The notes under the pieces: generated by a model
What the model was told of the DNA's origin: nothing
Databases searched by the model: none
What the model saw: the letters and a program-made list of their open reading frames with translations, nothing else
Part shown: positions 27,856 to 59,400 of the stretch, piece after piece
How the letters are laid out: the number at the start of each line of letters is the position of its first letter
How positions within the stretch are numbered: position 1 is the stretch's first letter
From: Dromaius novaehollandiae
Taxonomy: Eukaryota; Chordata; Aves; Casuariiformes; Dromaiidae
Reading direction: 5' to 3'
Assembly: GCF_036370855.1 (NCBI RefSeq)
Contig: NC_088098.1
Coordinates: 41,807,981-41,871,980 of the forward strand
DNA length: 64,000 nt
Position numbers and translations under genes: made by a program

Positions 27856-29412
27856 GCTCACAGTAAATCATTACTGCTTAACAACAACAACAAAAAAGTC
27901 TGAAGTCAAACTGAGAGAGAGTAACGAGTATTAATAAAACTAACAGAAAACTGCCTGTTCAAAGGAAGCTGAAGAACACCATACACTGTCCTATCGTGGC
28001 CGGGTGTGCTTAATACATTCAGGACTGTTTCACTGTTCTGTTGTTCAGAAATCATCCTTTATTCTGTGTCTAGATTTCAATAGATCTGCACTGCAAATCA
28101 TCAGCTCCTAATTAAATATTGTTCCCAAATGCTCCTTGCAAAAGCTTCTTGGCAACACAGGATGGGATTCACCTCACCTAGCTCTAGAAGTCTGAATGCT
28201 GGAACTAGTCACCATCGGCTCCCTGTGTGTGTAGGAGCAATATGTGGGATTTCTCTTCAGATGAGATTATTTGCCCCTTCATGGTATTCTCATTGACTAC
28301 AGAAAACCTTATGAACATTAGAATTAGAATGTTACACTCCCATTCTTACAACAGTTTCTCAAAAAACATTTCAGGGATTCCCTGATTCTCGTTCCTACAG
28401 CTTCTACTTGTTTCTACTTTGATGTCTCAAAACATCTTCCAGTACAGGTCATCAGCAGGATCACCAGATGGAAACCTGTGACCTCTAAAACACACATCAA
28501 TAATACTTAACACTCTTGTAGCTCCTTGACTTTTTTAAAAGTAATAAGCCCAGAGACAATGACAAAGCACATCAATATCCTATGGCAAACCTAGGCCCAT
28601 ACTGCACCATACTCCTATTTTTGAGACCACATCACAGCTGCCCTCCTGGAAATCTTTATATATTTCTCAACACTTGTGCTATTTATGGGTACTATAGAAG
28701 AATCAACATCCACAGTTCCTGAATGCAGATACCTGTGTTTACTTCCCTAATGCTTTTATTTGTTCACTGCTTCCCAAATTATTAGTGACAGCTACTCAAA
28801 AGTGAAATCCTCCAGGTAACTACAGAATCACTGCTCTTATTCTTAGCTATTTTGTGGTTTCTATCATCTTTAGTGTTTTGTCTGAAGTCACTTCTGAGTC
28901 ACCAGATGATTCCCTTTCTGTTCAGTTCTGAGTTTACCTCCCAGCTAAAACCACCAGCTGTATGATTTTATGACATAGGTCACATTTATCACTAAAAATT
29001 TTTAGCTACTGAATTGTGCTCACAATGAAAAGGTTTAGTTACTACGATCACGTTAAACATGAGAAAAGGACCTAAATGGAAAGGTTAGACTCCAACTACC
29101 GATCTCCAGAAGTCTCCTATAATTGATAAAAGCAAGCATCATGCCAATACAGTATAGTATATAAAGAACCAGTTATCAGTAGCATGCTCTTACTTTTCAT
29201 TGCTAGTTTCTGCTAATCCAGATGAAAACAAACTAAGTCAGTCCCATGACTCAGGTAGGACATCCAGCATGGTGAGGCAACAGTGGCAGCTCCCCGGAGC
29301 AGCTTTTGTGCTGGGGGAGGCGGGGAAGGGGGTGCAAGTCACTGCCTGGGGTTGCAGGACAGATTGCAGGATGCTGCCTGGGGAAGAGCATCTAGGGACC
29401 ATGCAAGACTTA

Positions 29413-29967
29413 CTGTGGGATGTTTAGGGGAGGAACCAAAAGTGGATAAAGGAAGGGATTGAGGTAGTCTGGGGAAGAACCAATGTGGGAAACTGAAGAC
29501 ATGAGGGGATAAAAAGGGGCTGTTCATGTGTCCGGCCATGCCCTGCACCTAATCAGCGTGGTCTGTCCTAACTTGTTTTTAAATTCCTGAGTATTTTCCT
29601 GGGTGACGGACTCCCTCTCCTGTGTGCATGTGGAGGTCTGAGTGCCAGCAGCCGGCTGGGACCATGGGCAAGAGGGCCCAGGTGCATGTGGTGCCACAGT
29701 TGGAGCGGGCAACGGTCTGCCAGGGAGGCTGCAATTGCTAGCAGCCATTAAAGCAGTTGCGCTGGCAAGTAGGTGAGGCGACCTGGGAGCCAGGGGTGCG
29801 TGTGGGTGTCTAAAGCGAGATCATGGGCGAATTGCCTACCAGAGGGACGAGGGAGTCCCAGCTGACTGCCGGGGAAACCATAGGGTCTGGAGATTAACTG
29901 AAACACATCTATGCATGTATCTCTAGGGGATGAGTGTTATCACCCAGGGTTGTAGAGATCCAGGTTT
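29413..29967 (+). mobile_element. GC-rich LTR-like sequence (probable endogenous retroelement part)
   Basis: An abrupt GC-rich block within AT-rich DNA. On the plus strand it shows an LTR-like order. A TG-starting purine-rich segment is followed by a CCAAT box at 29480-29484, a TATA-like GATAAAAAGG at 29509-29518 and an ATTAAA signal at 29747-29752. No gag or pol frame is visible. The spacing fits U3-R of an LTR, but I cannot name a family and did not find a partner LTR or target-site duplication. A non-LTR origin remains possible. Confidence 0.35.
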
Positions 29968-30023
29968 TGTAATTCCCTTGGGCTAAATTAAGGTGAAACA
30001 ACACTAAACCATCAGTCATACCC

Positions 30024-30029
30024 TTTATT
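30024..30029 (-). terminator. AATAAA polyadenylation signal on minus strand
   Basis: The plus strand reads TTTATT. The signal is about 200 bases downstream of the start site predicted from the minus-strand TATA box, so a transcript from the heat-shock-type promoter could be short and end here. Confidence 0.5.
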
Positions 30030-30333
30030 CATTAACATGGACTTAGAAACAACATTAACTTGGAGGCAACCTGAACCTAGAGAGCACTAATGGTCGCCAA
30101 TGGGCGCTACTTACATGTTTGTAAGAGGAAACAAACAGATAAAAGGAGTGAAAGATACAAAAAGAGATAATCACCGACCTTGGATCCTGCAATACCTATC
30201 ACACCATACAACCCTCCACCCGTTGGTACACACATACCTTTCCGTGTCTGCACTTTTTATAGGCTCTTGCCCCACCCCCGGGAGGGCACTTCCTCACTCT
30301 TCATGCAAATGAGCTGCCATGCGCAGTCCACCC

Positions 30334-30351
30334 TTCTGGAACCTTCCAGAA
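30334..30351. promoter_or_regulatory. Perfect four-unit heat-shock element
   Basis: The sequence TTCtgGAAccTTCcaGAA has four alternating TTC/GAA units, each with exact 2-base spacing. This is the consensus binding array of trimeric HSF. It lies 73 bp upstream of the minus-strand TATA box. Confidence 0.85.
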
Positions 30352-30492
30352 ACGGTCTAGGGGCTTCTCGGGGTCTCCAGTGTTCTCCGCCCCCAACGTT
30401 GCAATGTCAGGGCCAATCAGAAAGCGGGACCGTGCGGTGCACTTTCCCCCCCGCCCCGTCCTTGCATTGCTCAACGGCCCCACACTGCCGGG

Positions 30493-30505
30493 TTCCAGAA
30501 GCTTC
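30493..30505. promoter_or_regulatory. Perfect three-unit heat-shock element
   Basis: The sequence TTCcaGAAgcTTC has three correctly spaced units. It is the distal heat-shock element of the same promoter, about 140 bp from the first. Confidence 0.8.
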
Positions 30506-30651
30506 TCTGGGACAGAAGGAGGGGCAGCCGCATGTTATGGTTTTGCTACTTTTATGGTTTGCCACTGTCATGCAGAACTTGTTTACAAAATTTCACCTTG
30601 TGACAATGTTTGAGACATTAACAAATGGCATGTCCTTAATGGTCTCTTACA

Positions 30652-31160
30652 GCAAGGGACCCGGAAGAGTGGGGATCCAGGACCAGCTACTGGATGGACT
30701 GCAAGTCCACGGCCAGCTGCTGGAGGGATCCTTCCACAGTGCGTGCGTGTGGGGGTGGGGTTATACCAGCTGCTGAAGTGGAGGATGGGGATATCCGGGG
30801 CTCATACATCCAGGAGCCAGCAACGGGGGAGACTGGAGATCCAGGGCCAGCTACTGGGTGGGCTGAGTGGCTGAGTCCAGCCACTGGAGGGACCCCTACT
30901 GTACATTTGTGTCCCCCTAATGGGCCTTCCCTTGATCAGCCAAAGGGGAACAGGATGAGAGCATTGGCATCATTTCTGTTTGTGAGTGCTGCATGCGTGT
31001 GTCTGTGTTGACCTGTGTGGCCAGCCATGTACATATACATTGAGTATACATGTGTTTGTGTGATGCCTCCTGAGAAAACAGGCTCAGCCTCACTCCTAGT
31101 TGGACCTGAGGCCATGGAGCTGCAGCAGCCTTGCCCCATCAGGCTACCAGCCTGGATTTG
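30652..31160 (+). mobile_element. GC-rich retroelement-like sequence with imperfect 164-bp tandem duplication
   Basis: The motif GATCCAGGRCCAGCTACTGG occurs at about 30675 and again at about 30839. The following approximately 80 bases are also alignable, each copy including CCAGCNNCTGGAGGG and a GTG-rich stretch. A fragment of the same start (GAGATCCAGG) lies at 29955, just left of the LTR-like block. This suggests that the block at 29968-30651 interrupts one larger repeat. No coding frame is preserved. The family is not identified. Confidence 0.4.
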
Positions 31161-32084
31161 GGTCTCCGTTCCTTGATGGCTATTACCTCCAAACCCAAGA
31201 GCTGGTTACAAGATTACAATCAGTCTTTTAACTTCATGTTCTATATCTAATTCTTAGTGCACGCATAATTTTTCAGACTGTAAAGACAGAAAATCTGAAG
31301 TCTCCATTGTTCTGTATTTCCAAAGCCCATCTCTACATATCTTAATAAAGTTTGTCTTTTGTTTTTCCTATTAATAGCAAGAAAAAAAAGTACTTCAGAG
31401 ATGTGCGCGAAGCGAGCAAGTCATAATACTTTCAAAATGAGCTTAATGAGATGATTCATTTAAATTACTATTATGATTTCCCAAGCAGCTATTTCTAAAA
31501 GGAAAAAATGAAGCTTTACATTCTGTTCCTCAGAACCCGAAAGAGAAAATACACATATTGTACATGATGGTTTCTTTTCCCTTTTTCCCTGATTCACAGC
31601 TTCACCAGTTGGCAATGAAAGGAAAAAAGAGATGTCTAAAGTTGCCTGCATTCAAAGAATACCCACATTTAAAGAATAAAATTTCAAACTGTGATAGAAC
31701 TTGAGAGTGTGACCAGAAAAGGGCTGTGATGGGACTTCATTCCTCTTTCACATTTCAAGGTCTTCACTACACATGCACAGCAAAATTTAACACAAGACAG
31801 TTTAAGTAGTGGCCATTTCTTGATACTTAAGTGGATCACACTTCAAATTTTCAAGTAGAAATAGCTCATGGCTGCTCTGAGGCTTTAAGTAGGCCACTGT
31901 GCTAGCTTTTTATATATACCAAAATTGAAAGCAGCAACTTTTACATGCATCCTCCATAAGATCATATATTTGCCATTGGACTATTTTTCCAATGATCACC
32001 AGATCAAACAAAAACAAACTTAATCTCCTTCCCTCAAGACATTCCTTCCCTCCCCTCTCCTTTCAATCCTTTTCTCCATGAAGA

Positions 32085-34473: not shown

Positions 34474-34635
34474 TTATGTCTTTTGTTGTATTTTCTGAAG
34501 AAGAAATTCTATCTGCAAGTTTAGATTTGGCTGTCCTTTTTTGGTCTTCTTACTCAGTATTTTATAAGCTTCCAGTTTCTTTTGCTTATACAACCGTTGC
34601 GCTTCTTCTCTTTGTTGTCTTCTTTTTTCAGCTTC
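34474..34635 (-). CDS. CCDC59: CCDC59 coding exon 4 (terminal)
   Basis: Acceptor TATTTCAG, then 53 codons and a TAA stop at 34476-34474. It carries the end of the coiled coil, [11 protein letters not shown], and a C-terminal LLQKIQ motif typical of the family. Confidence 0.94.
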
Positions 34636-37600
34636 CTGAAATAAAATAGATTATGCCAAAATAATTAAAAACCTTCTACACCTGACAAGTTGCTATATAA
34701 TATTATAATATTCATTTCTCCAAATAAGTAACAATTAATGCAATGCTTGCCAATAAATGTGGAGGAAAGCGTGTAATTATCATACCAGTATTCCATATAA
34801 ATGATTATTGTTATTCCAGTACTTAGCCACTGTTTTTGTCTAAATACCTTGAATAAGGCAAACGCTTCCCCCCGCCAAGCAGTTCTTATGAGCTGCTTCG
34901 GAGGAAAGTCCTACTGCAGTCTTTCTGGGCTTTTGTTTGTTGCTACGTTCTCTAAATAAGCTGTTTACAACCTTTGTTTCCTTTAGTATTACCTGTATCT
35001 AATGTTTAAAACCTAAACTCACAGCTGAACACAACATATGTAACCTCCCCTAGAACCAAGATCACAAATTTGGCTTGCAAAAACCTCCTCTTGATTTCAA
35101 TACAGCTAAACCTAAAGAAATCATAAATTTTATCATACCATATGTATTAATGTAATGTTTATACATTAGTTACTGGAATTTAGTTTGATTGCAGAAAGTT
35201 ACACAACTCCTACAGTGTTCCAATGTGTGCCATTCCATAGTCCAACCAACAATGAACTGAGAGAGAAAAGGTCTAATTAAATAAGGATGTCTCAAGTAAG
35301 TCACTCAACTGAGTTATTCAACAATGACAATATTAAGATACACACTGTAAATATAAGTCCCATTAAATTAGTATGAGGAAAAAATTACTAGCAATTTTGA
35401 ACATACTGGTCTTGGATATTACATTTAATAGTTTCATTGTTGACCAAAGCATGTAATATGAAAACTGTGATATAACACAGTAAAAAATGGGAAGGTTATT
35501 TCATTTTTTAATCACTAGATGATGGTAGTGTTATTACTTCCTCTTCTACAATATTTAAGACATCTAGTATAATCCACTGGGATATGCACATCAAGGTCTA
35601 TGTACTTCTTGATGATGCAACTGATGTAATAAAATCCCACTAACGGCCAACTACAAGCCAAATAAGTAGTACTGTGAGAATCAAGAGAATAACTTTGAAC
35701 ACTTGCATGTCTGAATATTATTGTCAATCTGAAAGCGAATGAAAGAATACCAGTACCCATGTTCCCCTCACATGGTCCCTTTTCTGTCCACCCAAATGGA
35801 TGGATTAAAAATGGTATTATCCTCGCCTTTGTCTACAGTCAAGAAGGATCTCTGTTTAAGATTTACCTCTTTCTTCTTGGCACGTTCAGCCTTTATTTTC
35901 TCATACTCTTCTTTTGCCTTCTGATTGGACGTTTTCTTCTTAAACTTCCTTTCAGTTATAACTGGCCTATAATTAAAAAGTACACATACTTTGCATACAG
36001 ACTATCACTAAGCACATTTAATCATATATCCCTTTGCCACTGCAGATTCAGAGTACAGTCTTTTAAGATTTATAGATTATGTAAGTGAGAAGCAGGGCCC
36101 ATTCTATACTGGATGGATGCCTACCTGCACTAATCTTGTATGATACTCACGTATAATGAGCACCTAGCATAAAAACATAGCAATTCTGAGTATACTGAAG
36201 ACTGGACTGCACAGACTGTTAGAAACACATATACCTTATCTTCACATGGATGAAGTTTCATAAACTTTAAAGATCGCCAAAGAGGTTTTCTCCAACCACA
36301 CTGGCTCTTCAGAGATCAGAAAACTCCATGCATCAGCTTAGAGCTATATTATCTCTTTCTAGTTCCAACACATGGATGCAATTGCAGAGTTATGAGGACA
36401 GCCAACTGTGAGCAGAATGTCTCCCAGAGAAGTGACACTGACGTGTAGACAAAAAAAGTGGAGTAATAATGCCTTTATGAAAGCCTCTTCTTGAAGGAGA
36501 GGGTATACTATTATCCTGAATGTTCAAAAATTAGCAATGGAAATTAGCTTCCTTCCCAATTTCAATAACAGATCTGCTACAGGTGTCTTTCAACAGAGAG
36601 AACAATTCAGGAAAAACAAGATGTTTGTCTGACATTCTCTGTCACCACTACTTTGAGTGGATTTTTCTGGTTACCTAGTTCTGATTTTTTTTTTTAGATT
36701 CACAATAAAGTCACTGCATAAACAGTGTGTTAGCAAAGACATTTCACACTTGAAAATATAAGCCTTGATAGTTTTTTAAACATCTGCTGCCAAAACAAGT
36801 TCTGATTTCTCCATTATTCACACTTCAAAGCAGAAAACTAGCCATAATCATCTAGGAAATCTCAGACAATCAGAGAGGAAAGTGAAGACATTCGCTCATG
36901 TTTTCATTTGGAAATACCACTCTGTTCTGGGGGGGAAAAAAAAAAAGAAAAAAAAATCTTTGTCTTAGTCTGAACTCCATCTTGTGGCAATACTGTGTAA
37001 TAACACCTCACCTGCTCAAGTGAGAAACTCTTCAAATGGTGACATATGCTAAAAATAGAATTACCTAAGCAAAATTTTATTTTACATCCACAGAACAATA
37101 AAGTCTATCTAAAGACTGTAGGTATCACTGCACCTTACAGATTAGCAGTTACAGTCAGGCAGAATTATTAATTTTGGTTTATATTCACAATGATCCTAAT
37201 TTAAGCAAAACAAAAAACCTTTCCTTAAAGAGAAACACCAGTCCTATTTCAGACAACCTCACAAATTAACGGTCAGTTCTAGACAACAGTCTACCTTTCT
37301 CCCAGTGCAGGGCTTGGATTTGATTACCTCTCCCCCCATTCTCAAGCATTTTTCCCAGCAAAGTTTATAGGTAGATACACCTTGAAATTCAAGGACTTAA
37401 GGCATTCCTTGTAGTAGGGGCAACGAGACATTATCTCAATTGCCATATTCAAACACTGTTTCAAACACTGCCATGAATGACTGCCAGTTTTCAGGTTACT
37501 GACATACCTAACAAAGATTTCAGGGGGACTTACTGTCAAACAGGGGAAGAATCATCTAAGCCATCTAATGTTTTTAGGCCTCAAATGAAACATTTGACTT

Positions 37601-56400: not shown

Positions 56401-59400
56401 AGTATGTATTCTCCACTGTTTTGTGTAGTCTTTCCTACTATGAATTTGTAATTTTTGTTCTAATTCCGTGACTATACAAATTTATAAAATTCTTGGAGTA
56501 AAGAATAAACCTTTCTCATTTCAGTGAGAGTAATGCTCTATTGAGTGCAGTGTAAGCTTTCATATGAATGTCATACAGACCAAGAACAAGACATTAAAAA
56601 ATAATCCCGAATCAGTCACTTTCAAGAATATTTACTAACAAATAAGTCATTATATCTAGTCAGTATAATTTCTGGTAGATACTTGAACAGAAGAGACCAT
56701 TATCAGTTCGTTTCCTTAGAGAACTGGTACTCTATTGCTTATTTGCATAAAATATTTGATCATGTATATATATTTAATAGAAATTAAAACACACGTAGTA
56801 AAAGGTGTGATTATGTAAAGTTCTGAGGTTACCTTGTTTCTGGTACTACTCTGTGCCGTGTTTCCTTCCTGCATTGCATAAATTGGTGAAGTAGTATACC
56901 CTTTGAGTTATGAGAAACTTAACTTCCTAAATATCCTTTCTATTCACTCCTCCTTCTAGAACAGGCTGTGAAAAGCACATGGCATATGAGCCCCTTTGTT
57001 TTATTATGAAAGTATCCATATGTTACATAAATCCCTGTATGGATCATTTTCGCAGAATGGGAAACAAGTATAAACATTCGGACTTAAAAGGCAGTACTCA
57101 TACTGTCTGTCTTTAGGCATGTGTCTGAGGTGGTTAAGGTAAGAAACTGAGTCTGAAAATGGTTATTTCTGTGTATCTAGTGGTAGGAGACTTCTAACTT
57201 AAGCATGGCAGTAGACTCCTAACTTAAATATGGCAGTTAGATGTGTAAAGTAAACACTAGGAATACTTTCTTTCCTAACTGTATAACCTGGCCCAATCTG
57301 GAAATGACAGGTGGTGTTGGTGGTAGCTTGTGGTTATTTTCTTTAGCTGAAGGAAATTCTGTGTCAAAAAATACAATGAAAGACTTCTCCAGAAGAGTCA
57401 GGACATGTGCTGCATAAGCATTGCAGTGTCTGTTTTCTGGAACAAATCAGTTCTGATTTATTGTTGTGTTTTAAAGTCAGCACGAAGTTCAACTAAGCAA
57501 GTGAACAAAGTATCAGGTGGGATAACTGATAATTATGAATTCCATGGTAATTATGAACAAAAATATGAAATCTGTGCTTACTTTTCTAGGAAATTGTTGC
57601 ATTTGATTGAAATGTATCCTGTTTGTTGCTCATTAATATAGCAAATCTTTTTTTTTTTTTTTTTCATTACCTAGGTGATTGATATAGGTTCTGGAAAGGG
57701 CTACCTGAGTTCCTTTTTGTCTATGCACTATAACTTAAAAGTTTATGGAATTGATTCCTCAAACACCAACACTCACGGTGCTCATGAAAGGAACAGGAAA
57801 TTGAAGAAACACTGGAGAGCATATCAGAGTCGAGCAAGAGCCAGTCTCAAAAGCCAGCAGTCAGAAGAGGTGAATGATAGGCCAGTGCAAACTGAAATTA
57901 AATGTGAAGCAAATACCAATGAAAAGCCCTTAAATAATAACAGCAGTCTTCAAAGTCAAGACCAAGTGACTGTCCAAGATTTAGTTCCTTCTGGTGTTTT
58001 CACAGAAATAGCTACATCTGAAACCAGCAAACAAACTGAAATTCATTTGGTGACTCAGACACAATCTGATGAGAGCAAGCTTTCTGAAAATGTTCTTGCT
58101 ATTCTAGATGTCCTGCCTGCTGATGCTGTTGAAGTTTTTTCTTCATCTCGGTGTGACTGTGGGGAGCTCTGTGAAGAGGAAAAGGCACGAAGAAAAATGG
58201 CATCTGTTAAGGCCAAAGCAAGCAAGTCAAGTGAATCAAACCTTTATTTTCCATTGACCTCCTACATCACTGCAGAAACAGAACTCAGTGACATCATTAC
58301 AGATCTGGAGGTTATTTTACTAATATTTGAAGTAGATTGTTTATTACCTTCATATTGTCATTTTTGTATATACAGAATGTTTGCTGAGTGCACAGAGAAT
58401 ATTGTCAGAGGTGTAAATGAATGGGGAATTCTGGCCCAATGATGCTTTTCAGCTTGTTTGCGTAACTATGCCTAATAGATACAGAGATTGTTTTTCTATT
58501 TCAATATATGTGTTAGGATTATTTTGAACATCTAAGTAAAGCAGCCTTTAGAATTTGTGAGGTAGATAATAATCAGCTGTCAAAGTTAACAGCATAGATA
58601 ACAGTGTATTCAGCTACTTTACAGATGTGTTTGTAGATAACATGTCTAATTATTATGAAAATGGGTATATGTAACAGAAGAATGTATTATTCTCTGAAAT
58701 GTCCTATTTTTGTGTTTTTTAATTTTGTCTTGAACTTTGAAGTTATAAAAGAATTTAGTGCCTATAGTACTCAACATAAAGAATTTAAGCCTTATTTATA
58801 AATAATGTTTTTATATTTTGGCTTTTCAGAGTTACTTTAAGTACCTTTAATAATTTACTAACCCACAAGGTTTATATGTACGCAAACAGGCCCAAGCTCA
58901 GCTTCCCAAAGACAGTGACATGAGTCCGGAAGCAGTATAGCTGTGTTAGTTCCTATGCCTAGGCTAACATACACTGATTGGGTAGATAATATGCAGTCTT
59001 TCATGGAAACGTGAAAGCTCGTCTGTGTTCAATAGTAACTGAATTAAATACATTCAAGGAGTGTAATTCATCTCTATTTCAAGGCCACGTTTGTGTTAAT
59101 GGGCCTGTAACTGAGCTAATAAATTCTGCTAAGTATCTGAGAATGTATGGAGCAGGCTCATGTCTGCCTAGAAAAGATATATCCTGAGGAGTAGGATCTG
59201 TTCACTTGAGTGCAGTGTGAATTTTGATTATGTACCTTGTGGACAGCAGTAGCATGTGTCCGTGTGCTCAGAATGCAGGCAAGGAGCTTGGGGTTCCCTG
59301 TGCCCACTGCATGGATGTGTGCTTCATGGACCTAGAGTTACTCCTGTTCTTTACACTTACGTAAAACAAATACGAGGTATATGCTCTTAAATTTGCACAG

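What the first reader, a model, noticed from the sequence alone, without database searches (positions are those of the whole stretch)
30253..30505. Orphan heat-shock promoter in intergenic DNA
Two perfect heat-shock elements (four units at 30334-30351, three at 30493-30505) sit with an inverted CCAAT box, two GC boxes, an octamer and a canonical TATA box, all in workable positions for minus-strand transcription. This is the layout of HSP70-class promoters, yet no chaperone gene follows. It could drive a stress-induced noncoding RNA toward lower coordinates.
Basis: partly seen in the sequence, partly recalled or inferred. Interest (0 to 1): 0.78.

Follow-up and report, generated by a model that had tools for sequence, protein, structure and literature searches.

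The report
Retroviral LTR with heat-shock promoter
The "orphan heat-shock promoter" is the promoter of an old retrovirus remnant (a solo long terminal repeat), and the same heat-shock-factor site occurs at over a thousand places in this animal's genome, which suggests that a group of retroviruses used the host's heat-shock machinery to switch themselves on.

Summary
The motifs are real: a 4-unit and a 3-unit perfect heat-shock element (HSE), CCAAT box, GC boxes, octamer and TATA box on the minus strand. They are not an orphan HSP promoter but the U3 promoter of a 717-bp solo LTR (window 29935-30651, minus) of an endogenous retrovirus, inserted into an older repeat; two relatives of that repeat run through the site without it. 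Relatives have 5-bp target-site duplications; two are proviruses. The proximal HSE 15-mer occurs 1144 times in the genome (backwards control: 4). Eight such sites that I read lie in two other LTR types, which share a ~133-bp core promoter with this family. In copies found without using the HSE it is exact in 21 of 21 aligned, while the median 15-mer window is exact in 19%; it ranks first of 703 windows. It was therefore probably under selection in the replicating retroviruses. Most likely HSF drove their transcription, as in plant ONSEN; HSF binding and heat induction were not tested. This copy lies 3.8 kb beyond a CCDC59-like gene; I saw no sign of a host function and did not test for one. 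HSF sites in LTRs are known from plants, HIV and a cattle retrovirus; my searches showed no HSP70-like version on this scale in vertebrates.

The parts
29935..30651 (-). Solo LTR (717 bp) of an endogenous retrovirus, family A; begins TGTAAGAGACC, ends GTGATAACA on the minus strand
   Evidence: Edges from alignment with 29 other loci; family-A 5' end motif at 65 places with up to 2 mismatches, control 0; two relatives of the flanking repeat are continuous across the site
30333..30352 (-). Proximal HSE, four perfect units here; the first three units (30338-30352) are the family-wide element, the fourth is a rare change
   Evidence: 3-unit 15-mer 1144 times in the genome, 4-unit 18-mer 10 times; most conserved of 703 15-mer windows
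30492..30506 (-). Distal HSE, three perfect units
   Evidence: nine core letters intact in 23 of 30 aligned family-A copies; no second HSE of 3+ units in the 8 type-B copies read
30412..30418 (-). Inverted CCAAT box (GATTGGC)
   Evidence: Intact in 19 of 22 independent copies
30385..30394 (-). GC box, moderately kept
   Evidence: As in the window in 8 of 22
30449..30457 (-). GC box, not kept in the family
   Evidence: As in the window in 1 of 22, in a gappy part of the alignment
30303..30310 (-). Octamer ATTTGCAT
   Evidence: 13 of 22; absent from the 8 type-B copies read
30254..30261 (-). TATA box (TATAAAAA)
   Evidence: 13 of 22 exact, 3 more TATAAAAG; TATAAA about 90 bp after the start of the HSE in all 8 type-B copies read
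30024..30029 (-). Poly(A) signal AATAAA; with the TATA box it gives the U3-R-U5 order of an LTR (R/U5 border inferred)
   Evidence: 18 of 22
29930..29934 (-). Downstream copy of the 5-bp target site (CTCAT)
   Evidence: Window sequence; the uninterrupted relative L099 reads CTCAT at the same place
30652..30656 (-). Upstream copy of the target site, decayed if it is one (CTTGC; 2 of 5 letters match)
   Evidence: Window sequence against L099; other family members keep 5-bp duplications
29240..29929 (.). Older dispersed repeat, one half
   Evidence: 351 first-look candidates, 40 scored, best relative 73%
30657..31200 (.). Older dispersed repeat, other half
   Evidence: 320 first-look candidates, 40 scored, best-scoring relative 73%; relatives run through the site

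Best explanation
Shown: it belongs to a dispersed LTR family with 5-bp target duplications and proviral members; its core promoter (HSE to TATA, about 133 bp) is shared with more numerous LTR types that differ elsewhere; the proximal HSE is the most strongly kept stretch of the LTR. Inferred: host heat-shock factor (HSF1, or HSF3 or HSF2) bound the HSEs and, with NF-Y at the CCAAT box and TBP at the TATA box, drove retroviral RNA starting about 30 bp below the TATA box (near 30229) and running toward lower coordinates. Retroviral lineages that kept the HSE left more copies. This copy lost its coding part by LTR-LTR recombination (inferred, the usual origin of solo LTRs); it may still be bound by HSF, but no host role is indicated.
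For: Dispersed LTR. 5-bp duplications: of 17 independent family-A copies with two comparable flanks, 8 exact, 5 with one mismatch, 4 none or unclear, the window copy among the 4. Two proviruses with TSDs ACTGT and CTGGC; Pfam reverse transcriptase over the cut-off in one (E 7e-10), integrase core in the other (E 3e-7, 30.9 bits, just under the cut-off of 32.6). Empty site in two relatives of the flanking repeat. HSE number: 1144 against 4. Conservation: proximal HSE ranks 1 of 703 windows, exact in 28 of 30 copies, and in 21 of 21 aligned copies found with an R/U5 query holding no HSE; 3 letter changes among 465 cells against about 38 expected from non-CpG columns. Of the 5'-end motif places on C1 that fall in the listed range, 7 of 7 have the exact HSE at the expected distance. 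Type B1, found with its own R/U5: 16 of 20 exact, 19 of 20 with all nine core letters. Likeness to the host HSP70 promoter. TTCxxGAAxxTTC is the composition that stable HSF1 binding requires (PMC9157408, passage).
Against: No binding or expression data. In B1 the HSE window ranks only 13th of 196, so in that younger type no excess over background is shown; by position on C1, 10 of 12 B1 hits in the listed range have the exact HSE. Three R/U5-found loci (L057, L061, L062) show no core promoter in the stretch fetched. The window copy's own target duplication is not clean (2 of 5 letters). The retrovirus class was not settled.
Confidence: 0.72

Rival explanations
1. A single-copy orphan heat-shock promoter of the host that makes a stress-induced noncoding RNA.
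For: Complete HSP70-like motif set in working order; the window copy has a fourth perfect unit, found at only 10 places genome-wide.
Against: It is one of many LTR copies, inside an older repeat with an empty site in relatives.
Confidence: 0.08
2. Promoter capture: an ancestral retrovirus took its core promoter from a host HSP70 gene, rather than evolving it piece by piece.
For: 18 of 19 letters of the HSE, spacers included, and 12 of 12 round the CCAAT box match the C5 HSP70 gene promoter in the same order and orientation.
Against: Both stretches are close to the best HSF and NF-Y sites (recalled), so convergence is enough. Spacings differ: CCAAT to HSE 71 bp in the LTR and 98 bp in HSP70, HSE to TATA about 76 and 15 bp; the sequence between gives no alignment, and the 8 type-B copies have no ATTGG upstream of the HSE (one orientation only).
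Confidence: 0.12
3. The conserved 15-mer is kept for another factor than HSF (for instance a STAT-like or pluripotency factor), or as a structural part of retroviral RNA or DNA.
For: The conservation is of letters, spacers TG and GG included, and not only of the nGAAn pattern; the fourth unit is usually imperfect (AGGAG or GGGAG in 18 of 22). U3 is also part of the 3' end of retroviral RNA, so an RNA role is not excluded.
Against: Three abutting inverted nGAAn units with 2-bp spacers are the defining HSF site, a second separate 3-unit HSE exists in the same U3 with 23 of 30 cores intact, and the site lies about 76 bp above a TATA box.
Confidence: 0.15
4. Host-kept network: many copies are held intact after insertion because they now serve as HSF-dependent enhancers or promoters of host genes.
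For: Singletons (mostly late changes) are also fewer in the HSE: 3 against 11.9 expected; both LTRs of the C2 provirus, only 75% alike, keep the exact HSE.
Against: More than a thousand sites under separate host selection is implausible; selection in the replicating retroviruses explains the shared part (0 shared changes against 25.8 expected). Nothing here tests effects on host genes.
Confidence: 0.1

Closest known systems
ONSEN, heat-activated LTR-copia retrotransposon of Arabidopsis
   Same: Heat-responsive element with nGAAn boxes in the LTR, bound by host HSFA2 (PMC3907296, abstract and passages seen)
   Different: Ty1/copia element of a plant with eight full-length copies in Col-0; here an endogenous retrovirus with over a thousand sites, heat activation not tested. 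The same paper cites a Drosophila copia-type element with heat-shock consensus sequences
HIV-1 LTR and HSF1
   Same: HSF1 binds a site in the LTR of a vertebrate retrovirus and raises transcription (review PMC9157408, passages seen)
   Different: An exogenous lentivirus; the passages do not describe an HSP70-like layout of perfect HSE arrays
Bovine leukaemia virus LTR heat shock element
   Same: HSE in the U3 of a vertebrate retrovirus, activated by HSF1 in reporter assays (review PMC10236774, passages seen)
   Different: A 10-bp element that I read as two units, in a deltaretrovirus; here two perfect arrays of 3+ units in an HSP70-like layout
Helitron HSEs of Caenorhabditis
   Same: A mobile element that carries many HSEs in a genome (PMC6927752, start of abstract and passages seen)
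   Different: DNA transposon of nematodes; there transcription under heat shock was measured
HSF1 binding in human Alu repeats
   Same: Dispersed repeats as HSF1 targets (review PMC9032817, passages seen)
   Different: SINEs, not LTR promoters
Host HSP70 promoter (L100, C5, intronless, same genome)
   Same: CCAAT box, GC box, HSE and TATA box in the same order; HSE 18/19 identical
   Different: Drives a chaperone gene; other spacings; no alignment outside short motif matches

Membership tests
Solo LTR of an endogenous retrovirus | Ends TG...CA at the same point in many copies | tested here: met
   TG start in 28 of 30 loci; AACA at the nominal 3' end in most of the 22 independent copies, AATA or ATCA in a few, misplaced in a few with indels
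Solo LTR of an endogenous retrovirus | Short target-site duplication flanking each copy | tested here: inconclusive
   Family: 8 of 17 comparable independent copies exact, 5 with one mismatch, 4 none or unclear. Window copy: CTTGC against CTCAT, not a clean duplication; the empty relative L099 supports CTCAT
Solo LTR of an endogenous retrovirus | Promoter and poly(A) signal in U3-R order | tested here: met
   TATA 30254-30261, AATAAA 30024-30029, minus strand
Solo LTR of an endogenous retrovirus | Proviral relatives with pol between two such LTRs | tested here: met
   C1:55479984-55486547, TSD ACTGT, with an RT match over the Pfam cut-off (E 7e-10); C2 from 119084304 to about 119092115, TSD CTGGC, with sub-cut-off integrase (E 3e-7) and RT (E 0.0097) matches
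ERVL / class III or ERV1 / class I retrovirus | Placement of reverse transcriptase and primer-binding site | tested here: inconclusive
   5-bp duplications fit ERVL (recalled); the RT piece is nearest to reverse transcriptases of the murine leukaemia virus kind among solved structures, weakly (E 0.003); no tRNA assigned
HSF-bound promoter (HSE) | Three or more alternating nGAAn units | tested here: met
   Two arrays, 4 and 3 units
HSF-bound promoter (HSE) | HSF binding and heat induction | not testable with these tools
   No ChIP or expression data held
HSP70 gene promoter | An HSP70 gene follows | tested here: not met
   HSP70-family matches on C1 lie near 4.8, 109.4 and 195 Mb, the window being at 41.8 Mb (56 matches listed, 73 of 79 candidates scored)

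The most novel reading that the evidence does not exclude
A lineage of retroviruses in this animal's ancestry evolved or captured an HSP70-type promoter, exchanged that core promoter between otherwise different LTRs, and left more than a thousand ready-made HSF sites in one genome; stress, fever or HSF activity in the germline was the trigger of its replication, and some copies may still give nearby host genes a heat response.
Probability: 0.35. Interest if true: 0.75.

Novelty: new variant of a known kind. Interest (0 to 1): 0.5.

Why it matters
Here the best-kept stretch of a retroviral LTR is a perfect trimer site for heat-shock factor, and the same 15-mer occurs over a thousand times in one genome. 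If HSF binds these copies, heat shock of a single cell line would test whether a vertebrate retrovirus family was stress-driven in the way ONSEN is in plants, and whether its remains now shape the host's heat response.

Tried and rejected
Orphan HSP promoter: rejected (repeat family). Misplaced HSP70 fragment: no HSP70 coding match near the window, and the LTR shares only short matches (10-19 bp) with the upstream parts of L100 and L102 and none listed with L101. Chance: rejected for the pair of HSEs. Ascertainment through HSE words: tested with an R/U5 query without HSE and with the 5'-end motif; the result stands. Dating by LTR pairs: not usable, since the C1 provirus has 2.3% divergence in the first 392 columns and 16.2% in the rest, which points to conversion or recombination, and the C2 pair is 75% alike. 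Rfam and tRNA scans of the window found nothing. One search's script stopped with an error after printing the results used here; the window statistics were redone. An earlier count gave ATCCC as an exact duplication for L018; one search shows one mismatch. Papers: searches listed no report of HSE arrays in a bird or other vertebrate endogenous retrovirus family, as far as titles and starts of abstracts show (search 71 listed 10 of 420 papers, search 44 8 of 20, search 45 12 of 17); most subscription journals are not in the library. PMC8310711 (passages seen) treats emu ERVs; the passages say nothing on HSEs.

Full report
OBSERVATION. A perfect 4-unit HSE at 30334 and a 3-unit HSE at 30493 within 253 bases is not chance: none of 20,000 Markov sequences of the same composition had both.

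WHAT IT IS. A search of the window's own genome (1.47 Gb, 271 contigs) with the block gave 40 scored matches of 629 first-look candidates, 77-86% identical apart from the window itself. Extending the match shows a unit of 717 bp, window 29935-30651 on the minus strand, family A here. It starts with TG and ends with CA, and has U3-type promoter motifs followed by AATAAA. The 5'-end motif (23 letters, up to 2 mismatches) occurs at 65 places, control 0. Of the 30 loci read, 22 are independent after grouping copies over 93% alike; mean pairwise identity is 0.81. Flanks show 5-bp duplications (for example CTTCC in L011, GATAA in L013, GCCTC in L030, TCCCT in L032, AAGGC in L036). Of the 22, five were left out of the count: L012 (its upstream flank is the polypurine stretch seen before the second LTRs), L020, L026 and L035 (first LTRs followed by shared internal sequence) and L037 (broken). 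Of the other 17, 8 are exact, 5 have one mismatch and 4 (L009 = window, L014, L016, L038) have none or are unclear. Two copies belong to proviruses with matching 5-bp duplications (ACTGT, CTGGC). Stop-free pieces match reverse transcriptase in L051 (E 7e-10, over the cut-off); in L052 integrase core (E 3e-7) and RT (E 0.0097) stay under Pfam's cut-offs. Of 10 pieces scanned, 6 had no match. The feature is therefore an LTR and the window copy a solo LTR.

INSERTION SITE. Both flanks are themselves an older dispersed repeat. With the LTR taken out, the joined flanks align through the junction with C33:14908150-14909470 (66% over 1291 columns) and with a C3 relative (67% over 686 columns). The C3 relative reads CTCAT followed by CCTTAGAGA, like the window's downstream flank, which fits a target site CTCAT; the window's upstream copy would have decayed to CTTGC.

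SURROUNDINGS. The LTR lies 3.8 kb beyond the last exon of a minus-strand gene (34477-34650, Pfam rRNA_processing) that I take for CCDC59, whose first exon lies in the CpG-rich stretch near 41.1 kb; a plus-strand methyltransferase gene (Pfam Methyltransf_32 at 57675), which I take for METTL25, probably starts there too (names and pairing recalled). Transcription from the LTR would run away from both genes.

HOW COMMON. The 15-mer of the first three units occurs 1144 times in the genome against 4 for the same letters read backwards. I read 8 of the listed places, all on C1: all 8 are in two other repeat types (B1: L068, L069, L071, L074; B2: L070, L072, L073, L075) that share their upstream half with each other but differ beyond it. 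They too are LTRs: they run from TG(T/C)AGA to GACA, and I read 5-bp duplications in L069, L072, L073 and L074 (exact) and in L071 and L075 (one mismatch); L068 is unclear and L070 has a polypurine stretch before it (read by eye). They align with the window LTR over positions 274-406 (HSE to TATA; 79-86% in 7 of 8, a longer 68% match in L073), and the four B1 copies also align weakly near the poly(A) signal; the 15-mer itself is identical by choice. First-look candidates were 1583 for the B1 R/U5 and 94 for the family-A R/U5. The perfect fourth unit of the window copy is rare: 10 places.

CONSERVATION. In 30 aligned family-A copies the proximal HSE is exact in 28 and ranks first of 703 windows, whose median is 0.167. 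To exclude bias I used copies found with an R/U5 query that holds no HSE (94 candidates, 40 scored). Of its scored places I looked at 25 independent ones besides the window: the HSE is exact in the 21 that align (median window 0.19) and in L059, which has an insertion; L057, L061 and L062 show no core promoter in the stretch fetched. A second check: of the 65 places with the 5'-end motif, 7 lie on C1 within the range listed, and all 7 have the exact HSE at the expected distance; two of the 7 are the LTRs of one provirus and one is the window. In one search (31 rows; the second LTR of the C1 provirus was dropped) the HSE has 3 singletons and no shared changes or gaps, against 11.9 singletons and 25.8 shared changes expected from 513 non-CpG columns. 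The distal HSE is kept in 23 of 30 (nine core letters), but as a 15-mer window it ranks only 69th. CCAAT is kept in 19 of 22, AATAAA 18 of 22, TATA 13 of 22 exact, octamer 13 of 22, GC boxes poorly. In the younger B1 type, found by its own R/U5, 16 of 20 are exact and 19 of 20 keep the nine core letters, but the window ranks only 13th of 196, and by position on C1 10 of 12 have it; B1 alone would not show constraint.

MECHANISM. The shared changes missing from the HSE point to selection while the retroviruses replicated. The reduced singletons hint at some retention after insertion, but this is weaker and LTR-pair dating failed. The simplest mechanism is HSF-driven transcription: an HSF trimer on the HSE about 76 bp above the TATA box, with the CCAAT box between the two HSEs. 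The genome's own intronless HSP70 gene has the same order, with 18 of 19 HSE letters and 12 of 12 CCAAT-context letters alike, but its HSE has one imperfect unit and lies about 15 bp above the TATA box. A second HSP70-family gene (L101) has no perfect 3-unit HSE in the 1.7 kb looked at. No tool here measures binding or heat induction.

AGAINST THE KNOWN. ONSEN (PMC3907296), HSF1 on the HIV LTR (PMC9157408), the BLV LTR HSE (PMC10236774), Helitron HSEs (PMC6927752) and HSF1 on Alu repeats (PMC9032817) are precedents, all seen here as abstracts or passages. I file this as a new variant of a known kind: an LTR with HSEs, here in a vertebrate endogenous retrovirus, with an HSP70-like layout and in very large number.

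HOST. The genome's size, two large contigs (C33, C35) that share an LTR insertion with 99.8% identical flanks, and the recalled place of the CCDC59/METTL25 pair on avian chromosome 1 suggest a bird, perhaps a ratite with little-differentiated sex chromosomes; the species was not established, and 'bird' is an inference.

Noticed in passing
G000 contig C121 (L018, L021-L025, L028, L029): Eight fetched LTR copies on this 2.5-Mb contig share the same flanks and target site (96.6-97.2% identity over 3.7 kb in the two pairs compared): one insertion multiplied with its surroundings, on both strands; one search lists 11 places there.
   Followed up: partly
G000:C1:55479984-55486547 (L020, L076): Provirus whose two LTRs differ by 2.3% in the first 392 columns but 16.2% in the rest; the second LTR lacks the TATA region. 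Suggests gene conversion or recombination between LTRs.
   Followed up: partly
L068-L075: Modular LTRs: types B1 and B2 share their upstream half but have different downstream halves, and share only a core promoter with the window family.
   Followed up: partly
G000:C1:218762077-218797066: The 5'-end motif of the LTR, with the same two mismatches in five of six, recurs every 5-8 kb at six places: probably a tandem array of a provirus-like unit.
   Followed up: no
L059 (C1:48394240-48395700): Family-A LTR with some hundreds of bases extra between the HSE part and R/U5; C1:32893204 has its HSE at a similar long distance.
   Followed up: no
window 30651-30731 and 30815-30895: Two 81-bp imperfect direct repeats (73%), almost wholly inside the older repeat that the LTR entered.
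   Followed up: no
window 26972: Another perfect 3-unit HSE outside the LTR; expected number by chance 0.7 per window, so probably chance.
   Followed up: no
G000 contigs C33 and C35 (L032, L033): Same LTR insertion on two large contigs with 99.84% identity over 3.7 kb: sex-chromosome pair or haplotype duplication.
   Followed up: no
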